In this document: piece after piece, positions 9,286 to 14,536 of the stretch
Layout of the letters: every line of letters begins with the position of its first letter
Numbering within the stretch: position 1 is the stretch's first letter
Assembly (NCBI GenBank): GCA_020328045.1
Contig: JAIXMY010000002.1
Span: 1-41,312, forward strand
Reading direction: 5' to 3'
DNA: 41,312 nucleotides
Source of the DNA: Candidatus Endomicrobiellum pyrsonymphae
GTDB taxonomy: Bacteria; Elusimicrobiota; Endomicrobiia; Endomicrobiales; Endomicrobiaceae
Position numbers and translations under genes: made by a program
The notes under the pieces: model-generated
Database searches by the model: none
What the model saw: only the letters and a program-made list of their open reading frames with translations
Told to the model about the DNA's origin: nothing

Positions 9286-11607
9286 TCAATACAAATATTT
9301 TTGAAAAGATATAAAAGTTTCGATAATTATTTGCTCACTATTGCCTAATTCTCTGATACCGTCTTCAATAGTTTTATATTTCAGTTTTATAAGTTCGGGT
9401 AACTTTTCTTGATTTAATTCTTCAACGCCGATTTCTACGTATTTATCCAAAACAAAATCCAAGAAAACTTTTTGCTTATCTTCGAAGTCTTCGACTTTAG
9501 ATATTTTTTCTTTTGCTCTTTCAGCCCGAACTACTCTTGTCAAAGGTCTAATGTTATATGCAAGATATTTTAAAGCGTCAAACAGATCACTATTTTGGGT
9601 GTCTGTAAGCTGTTGTAAAACTTCAAGATTTTTATGTCCGTATCCCGCTTGCTCAAGTTTCTCTAAAAGTTTTTTGCGAGTATCCGGTTTTAACCAAATA
9701 TCTCTTAACTCTTGTTCGCTCGTAAAAAACTCGGGCAATTTACCGAACCATTTACGTAAAAATTGTTCGTGGGACATAAGAGTTCCGCTTGCCTCATCCC
9801 AAAACGACGTTTGCGCCATATACCGAATTTCTCTTTCCTTCCCTTCCGCTAATTTTATTATAACTTTCTGTTTTTCAGACTGTTCAAGTGGAGTCTCTTT
9901 TTCTACAATATCAGACTGTTTAACGCTTTTTATCTGTTTTTTAGGAGATTCTTCAATGTCTATAACGTCTATAGGTTCGCCGTCCCATTGAGGATCTAAA
10001 AAGTTTTTATAAGCGCCAACAAAATCGTATATTGTAAAATATTCTTTACCATCAAAGAGTCTTGTTCCTCTGCCAATTATTTGTTTAAATTCGATCATAG
10101 AGTTCACGGAGCGCAAAAGCGCAATAGTTCTAACATTTCTCGCATCGACTCCTGTAGAAAGTTTTTTAGAAGTCGTTAAAATAGTAGGGATTGTTTTATC
10201 GTTATCTTGAAAATCTCTTAAATGCTGATCACCTATTTCACCTTCGTTTGTAGTTACTCTTACGCAATAATCGGGATTTTTGCTAGTTTTAATTTGGTTT
10301 ATTAAATCCCTAAGCAAAGCCGCATGCTCTTGATTTGCGCCAAAAACAAGCATTTTTTCTTTTTGATCTATTTCATTCATAAAAATTTCAACATACTTTT
10401 TTTCTCTCTCTTCAATTTCAATATCTCGATGGAATTCTTCTCTTACATACTCATGATTTTTTTTAACTTCTCCTTCAATAACATCGTCGTCATCAGCATA
10501 AATGTAGGAATCCAAAGTTGTTTGAACACGCCGAACTTTAAAAGGCGTTAAAAATCCGTCGTTTATACCCTCTTTGAGAGAATAAGTATATACGGGCTCG
10601 CCAAAATATTTATACGTATCCGCGTTTTTATCGCGTTTCGGCGTGGCCGTCATTCCAAGATGTGTTGCCGGTGAAAAATAATCTAAAATAGCGCGCCAGC
10701 GACTCTCATCATTCGCTCCGCCTCTGTGACATTCGTCAATTATAATAAAATCAAAATAATCTTTTGGATACTGACTAAAATAAGGGACATCTTCCGCGTC
10801 GGTCATAAAAGTTTGAAAAATTGTAAAAAAAATACTGCCGTCTGCGATGACTTTGCCTGTCTTTTTTATTTCTCTAGACTTAATGCGTTTTAAAGCATCT
10901 TCATGAAAATCCGAAAAAGTATTAAAAGTATTAAACGCTTGATCCGCCAAAAAATTTCTATCTGTTAAAAACAATATTCGCGGCGACCTTACGCCGTCTT
11001 TATTTATATTCCAACACGTTTCAAAAAGTTTCCACGCAATTTGAAACGCTATATAAGTCTTACCTGTTCCTGTGGCTAAAGTTAATAAAATGCGTTTCTT
11101 ATTTTCAGCAACGGCCTGCATAACTTTATTTACGGCTATTTCTTGATAATAACGTATAATAAATCTTGAACCGCCTTTGTTTTCAAAAGGAACAGAATTA
11201 AATTTATCGCGCCATTCATTTCGCTCAGCAAAAATATTATTATAAAACTCATCGGGAGAAGGAAATTTGTCTATTTTTTTCTCTTCACCAGTTTCCGTAT
11301 CAATAAAATAAATTTCCCTGCCGTTACTTGCCAAAGCGTAACGAATATTTAATTTTTTAGCATACAGCTTAGATTGAGCAACGCCTTCTCCCACAGACAA
11401 AGACAACTTCTTGGCTTCAATAACGGCAAGCTTCACGTTTTTATAAGAAAGCACATAATCTGCTTTAAGCCCTTGAGAAGAACGTATGCCGACTTTAGCT
11501 TCAGTTATGGGAAACTCGCGAAAGATTTTACAATTATTTTCCGCGGTCCAGCCACTGTCCTTCAATTTAGGCTCTATAAGTTCAGCCTTAGTTTCTGCTT
11601 CGTTCAT
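9286..11607 (-). CDS. hsdR: Type I restriction enzyme R (endonuclease/translocase) subunit
   Basis: N-terminal nuclease region (ADYVLSYKNVKLAVIEAKK), helicase motifs LTLATGTGKTYIAFQI, FIIIDECHRGG, LGMTATPKR, FKQIIGRGTRLFDGKEYFTIYDFVG; adjacent to hsdS and hsdM. Confidence 0.95.
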   Translation of the reverse strand: MNEAETKAELIEPKLKDSGWTAENNCKIFREFPITEAKVGIRSSQGLKADYVLSYKNVKLAVIEAKKLSLSVGEGVAQSKLYAKKLNIRYALASNGREIYFIDTETGEEKKIDKFPSPDEFYNNIFAERNEWRDKFNSVPFENKGGSRFIIRYYQEIAVNKVMQAVAENKKRILLTLATGTGKTYIAFQIAWKLFETCWNINKDGVRSPRILFLTDRNFLADQAFNTFNTFSDFHEDALKRIKSREIKKTGKVIADGSIFFTIFQTFMTDAEDVPYFSQYPKDYFDFIIIDECHRGGANDESRWRAILDYFSPATHLGMTATPKRDKNADTYKYFGEPVYTYSLKEGINDGFLTPFKVRRVQTTLDSYIYADDDDVIEGEVKKNHEYVREEFHRDIEIEEREKKYVEIFMNEIDQKEKMLVFGANQEHAALLRDLINQIKTSKNPDYCVRVTTNEGEIGDQHLRDFQDNDKTIPTILTTSKKLSTGVDARNVRTIALLRSVNSMIEFKQIIGRGTRLFDGKEYFTIYDFVGAYKNFLDPQWDGEPIDVIDIEESPKKQIKSVKQSDIVEKETPLEQSEKQKVIIKLAEGKEREIRYMAQTSFWDEASGTLMSHEQFLRKWFGKLPEFFTSEQELRDIWLKPDTRKKLLEKLEQAGYGHKNLEVLQQLTDTQNSDLFDALKYLAYNIRPLTRVVRAERAKEKISKVEDFEDKQKVFLDFVLDKYVEIGVEELNQEKLPELIKLKYKTIEDGIRELGNSEQIIIETFISFQKYLY

Positions 11608-11722: not shown

Positions 11723-12880
11723 CTAACAGCAAAATGTGCGTTTAAGCATGGATTTTTTTAGTTCCAACAAATCATCTATTTTCTTTTGATAAATTACCTC
11801 TAATTCTTTTGTTCTTAATGATAATTCATCGAGTTTTGAAACTATTTTTTGCTGCTCTAAAATATCACTAGGATAAGATATGGTAGTTTCTTTTAATTCT
11901 CTGTAATGTCTAGCATATCCTAAAGATTTTATGGGATTACTTAACATGCAATAATACAAAATTTTTGGGTTTAATCCTTTTTTTGGCTTAATAATTTTTA
12001 CGCCATCCGCTCCCAATATAAAATCAAAATCAACATATTTTAAAGTCCGCGTGTGATCTCCAAAAATTATAATAGGTTCTGCAACTTTAAATAATTTCCC
12101 TTTATCACAGGAATATCCATTTATAAATTCATTTTCTTGTGAAATAATTGGAAACTGACCTTTAGATAAGAAATCTTTTTTCTTTAATTTTGCGGAATAT
12201 GTAACTTTATCAATACAATCATCAAATCTTCTTACTTCCCAACGCGTTTTTAATATTAGAGTTTTTCTGTCTAGTCTGTCTGTCTGTCTGTCTGTGTCAG
12301 CTTTATTATTTCTAAACGTTTCCTTCAAAACGCTATTGAATATATTCTTTGCGTTCTGAAGATTCCTTCTTGCTATGTCTTCAAGTTTCTTTGTATTTTC
12401 AAACAATTTATCAAGTTTTGAAACTATTCTCTTTTGCTCATCTCTCGGTGGTACTAGAACCAAAATATCTTCTATTTGTTTTTTATTTATAGAAGCAAAT
12501 ACAGCTCCAGCAGAGCCTTTTATTTTATCTTGAATACTTATTAAAAATAAAAACAAATAATCATTAGAAAACTCTTTTTCATTTATTGATCGTATCGCAG
12601 CCAATCCTCTGCCAATACATATTTTTTCCGTCGCAAAATTTATTGGTCCCACAGGAGCGCGTACAGACATGAGAATATCGCCTTTTTGGGCTTCTTTTGT
12701 AATTTCAGTCGTCCAAACTGCCGGACATCCTACATATTTATCTGTAAATTCTTTTTTTCCTTGATAAAATGGCACCCCCTTGCCATTGTTATTGTAATAT
12801 TTACCATCCGGAGACTGTCCTGCTATTACATCGCAAACATCTCCAAGTTTTTTCATTTCCCACTTACTATTAGTTTTCAT
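11723..12880 (-). CDS. hsdS: Type I restriction-modification specificity (S) subunit
   Basis: Two TRD modules with conserved repeats (PPRDEQKRIVSKLDKLFENTKKLEDI... and LEQQKIVSKLDELSLRTKELEVIYQKKIDDLLELKKSMLKR); adjacent to hsdM/hsdR. Confidence 0.93.
   Translation of the reverse strand: MKTNSKWEMKKLGDVCDVIAGQSPDGKYYNNNGKGVPFYQGKKEFTDKYVGCPAVWTTEITKEAQKGDILMSVRAPVGPINFATEKICIGRGLAAIRSINEKEFSNDYLFLFLISIQDKIKGSAGAVFASINKKQIEDILVLVPPRDEQKRIVSKLDKLFENTKKLEDIARRNLQNAKNIFNSVLKETFRNNKADTDRQTDRLDRKTLILKTRWEVRRFDDCIDKVTYSAKLKKKDFLSKGQFPIISQENEFINGYSCDKGKLFKVAEPIIIFGDHTRTLKYVDFDFILGADGVKIIKPKKGLNPKILYYCMLSNPIKSLGYARHYRELKETTISYPSDILEQQKIVSKLDELSLRTKELEVIYQKKIDDLLELKKSMLKRTFCC
12274..12295. repeat. Tetranucleotide microsatellite (GTCT)5.5 on the + strand inside hsdS
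   Basis: Sequence reads gtctgtctgtctgtctgtctgt; encodes DTDRQTDR-like peptide in hsdS between the central conserved region and TRD2. Confidence 0.98.
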
Positions 12881-12899: not shown

Positions 12900-14354
12900 T
12901 TACTTTAATATTTTTTCAATTTCAGAAATTATTTTTACAGACTCTTTATTTAATTCTAATATCTCTTTCAATATATCTTTTGGATTTCTTATTATCGTTT
13001 CGTTTTTTTTGTTTGGATTTTTTACAGATAAATCGTAAGTTTCTTTATTTACATCTTCAATTTTTACAGTCCAAGAATTGTCCGAATTAGTTTTTGTTTT
13101 TTGAAGTTTAACAAATTCTTCTAAATCCTTTTCATTTAAAGGGTTGGTTTTGCCAAGATTTCTATTTAATTTTAATTGATAGTACCAAACTTTTTTCGTA
13201 GGAACGCCTTTCTCAAAAAATAAAACTACAGTTTTTACGCCCGCCCCAGTAAACACTCCGCCTGGCAAATCCAATAACGTATGCAAATTACAACTCTGAA
13301 TTAACTCTTTACGAAGCGATATAGAAGCGTTGTCAGTATTAGATAAAAATGTATTTTTAATAACAATGCCGGCTTTACCGCCTGCTTTTAGTATTTTCAT
13401 AAAATGCTGTAAAAACAGAAAAGCTGTTTCTCCAGTTCTAATATCAAAATTTTGCTGTACTTCGGGACGCTCTTTCCCTCCGAACGGTGGATTAGCAAGA
13501 ACTACATCAAATTTATCTTTTTCTTGTATGTCTTTAATATTTTTTGAAAGCGTGTTTGTATGCAAAATATTTGGCACTTCTATACCATGCAAAATCATAT
13601 TCATAATGCCTATAATATATGCGAGCGCTTTTTTTTCTTGGCCGGAAAAAGTATTATGTTGCAATACCAACTGTTCTTTTGTTGTTTTGACTCTCTCATG
13701 CAGATAGTTAAACGCTTCTATCAAGAAGCCTGCCGACCCTACGGCACCATCATAAATTTTATCCCCTATCTTAGGAGCCACAACTTTTACTATAGTCCTG
13801 ATAAGCGGACGCGGAGTATAATATTCTCCACCATTGCGTCCGGCATTGCCCATATTCTTAATTTTTGATTCATAAAGATGAGACATCTCATGTTTTTGAG
13901 CATGAGTAGAGAATTTGAGTTCGTCAACAATATTTAATACTTCTCTTAAATTGTATCCACTCTGAATTTTGTTTTTAAGCTCGCTGAAAATCTCGCCGAT
14001 TTTATATTCTATTGTATTATAGTTTGCTGCATTAATTTTAAATTTTTTAAGGTACGGAAAGAGTTTTTGATTTACAAAATTGACAAGATCATCGCCGGTT
14101 AAAGCTTTATTGTAATCTAATTTACCATCTTTTTTAGGACATGCCCAAACGCCCCACTGAAATTCTTTTGAAATTATATTTGTATATTTCTTGATTGCAA
14201 GCGCATCTTCTTTAGTTTTTGTACGCTCTAAATCGTCTAAATATCTCAAAAACAAAATCCAAGAAGTTTGTTCAATATAATCTAATTCGCTACTATTGCC
14301 CGCGTCTTTATGCAGAATGTCATCTACGTTTTTAAACGCTTGTTCAAACATCAT
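12900..14354 (-). CDS. hsdM: Type I restriction-modification N6-adenine methyltransferase (M) subunit
   Basis: HsdM N-domain (FKNVDDILHKDAGNSSELDYIEQTSWILFLRYLDDLE), AdoMet/NPPF motifs (GNAGRNGGEYYTPRPLIRTIV, DGAVGSAGFLIEAF, FDVVLANPPFGGKE). Start likely the Met after ggagaaa (near 14354); track ORF begins at 14408. Confidence 0.94.
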   Translation of the reverse strand: MMFEQAFKNVDDILHKDAGNSSELDYIEQTSWILFLRYLDDLERTKTKEDALAIKKYTNIISKEFQWGVWACPKKDGKLDYNKALTGDDLVNFVNQKLFPYLKKFKINAANYNTIEYKIGEIFSELKNKIQSGYNLREVLNIVDELKFSTHAQKHEMSHLYESKIKNMGNAGRNGGEYYTPRPLIRTIVKVVAPKIGDKIYDGAVGSAGFLIEAFNYLHERVKTTKEQLVLQHNTFSGQEKKALAYIIGIMNMILHGIEVPNILHTNTLSKNIKDIQEKDKFDVVLANPPFGGKERPEVQQNFDIRTGETAFLFLQHFMKILKAGGKAGIVIKNTFLSNTDNASISLRKELIQSCNLHTLLDLPGGVFTGAGVKTVVLFFEKGVPTKKVWYYQLKLNRNLGKTNPLNEKDLEEFVKLQKTKTNSDNSWTVKIEDVNKETYDLSVKNPNKKNETIIRNPKDILKEILELNKESVKIISEIEKILK

Positions 14355-14536
14355 TTTCTCCTTTTGAAAATTAATGGAGATGTTAGTCGATTTATATACC
14401 AAATACAAACCCCTAACTCTCTTTTCAATATAGGAGTTTAACCTCGAATGTCTTATCGGGGTCTTTCAAAGCCACTTCCCTCAAGGAAGAGAGATAACAT
14501 CAACTTGAAAATTACTACTTTTCCTCATTCGTCGCG

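What the first reader, a model, noticed from the sequence alone, without database searches (positions are those of the whole stretch)
12274..12295. Tetranucleotide tract inside hsdS: candidate phase-variable type I R-M specificity switch
A (GTCT)5.5 tract lies where the first half of HsdS (TRD1 plus central conserved region) joins TRD2 (...FRNNKADTDRQTDRLDRKTLILKTRWEVRR...). On the coding strand, adding one 4-nt unit reads ...RQTRQKNSNIKNALGSKKI-TGA and the third frame hits TAG almost immediately, so slippage by any number not divisible by three truncates HsdS to a one-TRD half-subunit. A three-unit change would instead add or remove four residues (TDRQ). Known precedents are spacer-repeat changes in EcoR124-type HsdS and the truncated HsdS of NgoAV. 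A mechanism that toggles between full-length, half-size and altered-spacer HsdS by tetranucleotide slippage would be notable in an AT-rich, possibly obligate symbiont.
Basis: partly seen in the sequence, partly recalled or inferred. Interest (0 to 1): 0.8.

Follow-up and report, generated by a model that had tools for sequence, protein, structure and literature searches.

The report
Repeat switch in a restriction-specificity gene
A short four-letter DNA repeat sits in the hinge of a gene that chooses which DNA a bacterial defence enzyme recognises; gaining or losing one copy would cut that protein in half, and relatives of this insect-gut bacterium carry longer repeats at the same hinge, several of them apparently caught in the cut-off state.

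Summary
(GTCT)5.5 lies at 12274-12295, in frame in hsdS (11723-12880, minus strand) of an hsdM-hsdS-hsdR operon of an Endomicrobiellum (Endomicrobiaceae, termite-gut Elusimicrobiota). It is the only such repeat in the 41 kb window. A change of 3n units keeps HsdS full length; any other change truncates it to a 197-224 residue half-HsdS.

New evidence: another genus of the family (G043) has the same hsdM/S/R system with (ACAG) of at least 28 units at the same hinge. Six further hsdS genes in the family carry an SSR at the TRD1/TRD2 hinge, five of them long (AAGTC13, AAGAC>=20, C14, G17, G14). Four are now out of frame, each one unit away from a full two-TRD HsdS. So an NgoAV-type full-length/half-size switch is well supported for the family.

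The window copy has only five perfect units with eroded flanks, and its three congeners with this system lack it, so present-day switching here is uncertain. The EcoR124-type spacer idea is unlikely: the repeat encodes a disordered loop (residues 193-210) outside the coiled-coil helix (146-190). SSR-driven hsdS variation is known (NgoAV; 7.9% of REBASE hsdS genes). New member of a known kind.

The parts
12274..12295 (-). (ACAG)n / (GTCT)5.5 tetranucleotide tract in the hsdS hinge
   Evidence: Sequence, SSR census and frame test
12266..12299 (-). Tract plus eroded flanking copies (TRF: 7.2 copies, 92% matches, 7% indels over 12266-12295)
11723..12880 (-). hsdS, 385 aa: TRD1, helix 146-190, tract-encoded loop 193-210, TRD2, helix 340-383
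   Evidence: PF01420 E 1.8e-33; AF2 model mean pLDDT 81; PDB matches to HsdS
12900..14408 (-). hsdM, N6-adenine methyltransferase subunit
   Evidence: PF02384 E 3.5e-64, PF12161; dN/dS about 0.09-0.11 against G020 and G041
9286..11607 (-). hsdR, restriction and translocation subunit
   Evidence: PF04851, PF08463, PF04313; dN/dS 0.15-0.31

Best explanation
The tract is a short, probably contracted member of a lineage-wide class of SSR switches in the hinge between TRD1 plus the central helix and TRD2 of HsdS. Slippage by a unit number not divisible by three would turn full-length HsdS (asymmetric bipartite target) into a TRD1-plus-central-helix half-HsdS. That half could pair with a second copy and, with HsdM and HsdR, recognise a symmetric target, or be inactive. 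Changes of 3n units would be near-neutral loop changes. Shown here: tract, frames, hinge position, longer homologous tract in G043, and out-of-frame hinge SSRs in relatives. Inferred: slippage in this species, half-HsdS activity, and effect on methylation. I put about 0.75 on the hinge-SSR switch as a real mechanism of this family and about 0.4 on the five-unit window copy still switching at a useful rate.
For: Frame test. G043: same hsdM/S/R order (hsdM 68%, hsdR 65% identity) with (ACAG)29 and (ACAG)28 at the two contig ends that meet in the hinge. G002, G056 and two G049 hsdS genes are out of frame at hinge SSRs, and one unit more or less gives a two-TRD protein of 340-448 aa. Purifying selection on hsdM and hsdR. 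Precedents: NgoAV (PMC9577141), and an engineered half-HsdS cut just before TRD2 that dimerises and methylates a palindrome (PMC6158711). Five tetranucleotide units meets the cut-off used by PhasomeIt.
Against: Only five perfect units with eroded flanks. Three congeners with the same operon lack the tract. No within-species variation could be examined. A half-HsdS of this system has not been tested. The G043 and G058 genes are split between contigs, so their joins are inferred.
Confidence: 0.6

Rival explanations
1. Frozen relic: an ancestral longer (ACAG) contingency tract has contracted and mutated to a stable, in-frame linker. HsdS is permanently full length and no switching takes place.
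For: Only five units, with imperfect flanking copies. The degenerate ACAG-like stretch in the G020 hinge (p about 0.01) and its absence in G041 and G008 suggest decay in the endosymbiont genus. ACAG tracts of five or more units are otherwise absent from the 42 genomes of the genus.
Against: Five units still meets published cut-offs. Another genome of the genus keeps a 13-unit pentanucleotide tract in an hsdS hinge, presently out of frame.
Confidence: 0.32
2. EcoR124-type spacer tuning: changes of three units add or remove four residues and so alter the length of the non-specific spacer in the DNA target.
For: A three-unit change is exactly four residues. Type IC systems use four-residue repeats to set the spacer (PMC10030836).
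Against: The tract encodes a disordered loop after the helix, not the coiled coil. Hinge lengths in close relatives already range from about 2 to 22 residues. The unit is 4 nt, so most slippage events would break the frame.
Confidence: 0.05
3. Chance low-complexity sequence or assembly artefact in a relaxed linker.
For: Linkers are poorly constrained, and the genome is a fragmented 122-contig assembly.
Against: The tract sits in an intact, selected operon; the same unit at the same place in a related genus makes coincidence unlikely, and simulation gives none of five or more units.
Confidence: 0.03

Closest known systems
NgoAV type I R-M of Neisseria gonorrhoeae (poly-G tract in hsdS)
   Same: SSR that lets slippage toggle between a full two-TRD HsdS and an N-terminal half of about 208 aa; in NgoAV the two forms have different motifs (PMC9577141).
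   Different: Tetranucleotide instead of poly-G; presently in frame here; unrelated host lineage; switching and half-protein activity not shown here.
Engineered half-HsdS of S. aureus CC398
   Different: Engineered, not phase variable (PMC6158711).
EcoR124-type (type IC) hsdS with four-residue repeats
   Same: Tandem repeat between the TRDs; a three-unit change equals four residues.
   Different: Those repeats lie in the central conserved region and set the spacer (PMC10030836); here the repeat is in a disordered loop and is 4 nt long, so it mostly shifts the frame.
Phase-variable mod and hsdM genes (phasevarions of Haemophilus, Neisseria, Moraxella)
   Same: Tetra- or pentanucleotide SSR inside a methyltransferase-system gene, changing frame by slippage.
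   Different: Those switch the enzyme ON/OFF; here the specificity subunit would change form. No regulon is shown.

Membership tests
Type I restriction-modification system | Adjacent hsdM, hsdS and hsdR genes with the expected domains | tested here: met
   PF02384/PF12161, PF01420, PF04313/PF04851/PF08463; HsdS fold matches 5ybb, 3okg, 1yf2, 7bst
Type I restriction-modification system | m6A methylation of a bipartite target and ATP-dependent restriction | not testable with these tools
   Needs a methylome or an assay
SSR phase-variable hsdS (NgoAV-like) | SSR at the TRD1/TRD2 junction whose slippage toggles full-length and N-terminal half HsdS | tested here: met
   Frame test of the window gene; model; long or out-of-frame hinge SSRs in relatives
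SSR phase-variable hsdS (NgoAV-like) | Repeat-number variation observed within the species or population | not testable with these tools
   One assembly of the species is held; no reads
SSR phase-variable hsdS (NgoAV-like) | Both protein forms active with different specificities | not tested
   Would need expression and methylome
Type IC / EcoR124 spacer-repeat HsdS | Tetra-amino-acid tandem repeats within the central conserved helix | tested here: not met
   Helix 146-190 has no such repeats; the tract lies at 193-210, outside it

The most novel reading that the evidence does not exclude
In Endomicrobiaceae, insect-gut bacteria that include intracellular symbionts of termite flagellates, unrelated hsdS genes have repeatedly acquired SSRs of different units (ACAG, AAGTC, AAGAC, poly-G/C) at one structural point, the hinge before TRD2. 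Toggling between two-TRD and self-pairing half HsdS would then be a recurrent, selected strategy that persists into the endosymbiont genus.
Probability: 0.5. Interest if true: 0.6.

Novelty: new member of a known kind. Interest (0 to 1): 0.45.

Why it matters
It would extend the NgoAV-type specificity switch, shown experimentally for an hsdS SSR in one pathogen according to PMC7394358, to a lineage of insect-gut bacteria that includes endosymbionts. The family offers homologous hsdS hinges with long, short and no tract, and hinge tracts caught out of frame, so one can ask directly whether half-HsdS forms are used and whether such switches decay on entry into intracellular life.

Tried and rejected
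Strain-level comparison: no second genome of the species is held. Spacer tuning: rejected on the model. Silent hsdS cassettes for recombination: the other PF01420 hits in the genome (C86, C108, C59) did not match this HsdS by sequence. A dinucleotide (AC)6 at the hinge of the second hsdS (C86) was compared with the 96.6%-identical G008 stretch, which shows only a single one-base gap in 2469 columns, so no sign of a unit change; not pursued. Atack et al. 2020 (FASEB J) and Zheng et al. 2016 (MBE) are not in the paper library, so the 7.9% figure is taken from papers that cite it.

Full report
WHAT IS THERE. The tract is exactly as described: 12274-12295 on the + strand reads (GTCT)5.5, which on the coding strand is a perfect (ACAG)5 core inside GACACAGACAGACAGACAGACAGACTAGACAG. 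It lies in frame in hsdS (11723-12880, minus strand, 385 aa, PF01420). hsdM is upstream, hsdR downstream, and folK (HPPK) follows hsdR. It is the only perfect repeat of 2-8 nt units above my cut-offs in the window. Third-order Markov simulation gave 0.03 tetranucleotide tracts of four or more units per window and none of five or more. No other GACAGACAGACA occurs in the 1.25 Mb assembly, and ACAG x5 occurs in none of the other 41 genomes of the genus.

READING FRAMES. Changing the unit number by multiples of three gives 381, 389 or 393 aa proteins with both TRDs. Every other change from -5 to +5 gives 197-224 aa, ending within about 25 residues of the tract. Downstream in-frame start codons exist only from codon 289 on, well inside TRD2, so an intact TRD2-only product is not expected from re-initiation.

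STRUCTURE. An AlphaFold2 model (12-sequence alignment, mean pLDDT 81) has TRD1, a helix 146-190, a gap at 193-210 with pLDDT below 50, TRD2, and a helix 340-383. It matches solved HsdS structures (5ybb, 3okg, 1yf2, 7bst). The tract codes for the unstructured loop, not for the coiled coil that sets the distance between the TRDs. I therefore regard the spacer-tuning mode as unlikely. Published type IC repeats lie in the central conserved region (PMC10030836), and those of M. pneumoniae in the dimerisation domain (PMC8836594).

ORTHOLOGUES IN THE GENUS. The same operon next to folK is present in G008 (the E. dinenymphae DS12 contig JAIXNA010000024, HsdR 91% identity), G020 and G041. G002 keeps only a fused hsdM/hsdR remnant there. 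The hinges differ: window FRNNKADTDRQTDRLDRKTLILKTRW; G020 FKNTSVIDGRQTYKKTHW; G041 FKNKSAVANDNRQVYKKTHW; G008 FRNKW. G020 shows a weak degenerate ACAG-like stretch (shuffle p about 0.01), G041 and G008 none. Non-Endomicrobia relatives found by the genome scan also have short hinges without repeats. hsdM (dN/dS about 0.09-0.11) and hsdR (0.15-0.31) are under purifying selection.

THE KEY COMPARISON. I scanned about 339 kb of hsdS loci (with overlaps between loci) from 77 genomes of the family. In another genus, G043 carries hsdM (68% identity), hsdS and hsdR (65%) in the same order. Contig C16 ends in TRD1-helix-(ACAG)29 and contig C12 begins with (ACAG)28-TRD2-hsdR. That the two ends belong together is inferred from the gene order. 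This is the window's own repeat at the same hinge, several times longer.

Six further hsdS genes have an SSR at this hinge: G002 (AAGTC)13, G058 (AAGAC) of at least 20 (also split between two contig ends), G056 C14, G049 G17, G049 G14 and a short G017 (AAGAC)3. In G002, G056 and both G049 genes the two halves are now in different frames, and one unit more (or one less in G049:C37) gives 448, 427, 381 and 340 aa two-TRD proteins. G017 has a TAA stop after its short tract, so no unit number tested joins its halves. In that scan the long tracts all lay at hsdS hinges; what else was listed were a 12-nt x4 repeat in the helix region of G074, runs of only three penta- or hexanucleotide units, and an (AC)6 at the hinge boundary of the window genome's second hsdS. 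By pairing nearby PF01420 hits I count 39 two-domain genes, about 43 with the window, G043, G058 and G049:C28 added by hand, so roughly one in six carries a hinge SSR of five or more units or a long homopolymer.

WIDER CONTEXT. (ACAG)>=5 occurs in 21 of 341 genomes of the phylum. In G047, a single-contig genome of another genus, six tracts of 8 to 33 units were located; several lie shortly upstream of outer-membrane-type genes, and one reads into a large repetitive ORF. In G056 and G043 short tracts lie inside methyltransferase-domain ORFs. ACAG thus looks like a common contingency-type repeat of this lineage, almost gone from the genus of the window. Genus Endomicrobiellum was named for the flagellate endosymbionts in PMC11257099, which also notes that R-M systems are abundant in E. 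trichonymphae but rare and randomly distributed in the family.

MECHANISM. Most likely the window tract is a contracted member of this hinge-SSR class. Full-length HsdS is encoded now. Slippage would yield a half-HsdS that keeps TRD1 and the complete first helix. A half-HsdS cut at the same place in S. aureus CC398 dimerised and methylated a palindromic motif (PMC6158711), and in NgoAV a poly-G change fuses a truncated HsdS into a full-length one with a different motif (PMC9577141). Steps shown: tract, frames, loop position, long homologue, out-of-frame relatives. Steps inferred: slippage here, activity of the half protein, biological use. Five units just meets the published cut-off for tetranucleotides, and the flanks are eroded, so a frozen relic is the main rival.

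NOVELTY. SSRs in hsdS are a known class: 7.9% of hsdS genes in REBASE, as cited in PMC9577141 and PMC7394358. I found no paper in the library that holds both Endomicrobia and hsdS. The four listed with Elusimicrobia and phase variation mention the former only once or twice each; I did not read those papers. The window finding is a new member of a known kind. The recurrence of different repeat units at one hinge across the family is the more interesting part.

Noticed in passing
L018:1-300 (E. dinenymphae DS12 contig end): The contig starts with about 70 nt that are the reverse complement of a stretch some 150 nt further in, inside hsdS TRD1: an assembly chimera or an hsdS rearrangement.
   Followed up: no
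L018:66-1040 versus window 11723-12880: The window's TRD1 (94% identity) sits in the TRD2 slot of the DS12 HsdS: movement of a recognition domain between the two positions of the gene at the same locus.
   Followed up: partly
L012:1402-2769 (G041): The two halves of this HsdS have the same TRD sequence, so it probably has a symmetric target encoded in a full-length protein.
   Followed up: no
L157:1198-2561 (G002:C12): Next to folK only an N-terminal piece of hsdM joined directly to a C-terminal piece of hsdR remains: a deletion remnant of the same operon.
   Followed up: no
L161-L166 (G047): (ACAG)n tracts of 8 to 33 units, several shortly upstream of OmpA-like or other outer-membrane-type genes: a set of possible contingency loci.
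   Followed up: partly
L203-L208 (G016) and L209 (G036): Several long (AAGAC)n tracts in two other genomes of the endosymbiont genus, mostly with no ORF of 100 aa or more close by; one tract (L205) borders a large repetitive ORF.
   Followed up: partly
window 39597-40922: ORF of 441 aa with nine Sel1 repeats (PF08238, E 2.2e-97) encoded by 111-nt tandem repeats of about 80% identity.
   Followed up: partly
window 38520-38674 and 37711-37837: Tandem repeats of 85 nt (x1.8, 94% matches) and about 41 nt (x2.5) in a stretch with no listed ORF of 100 aa or more.
   Followed up: no
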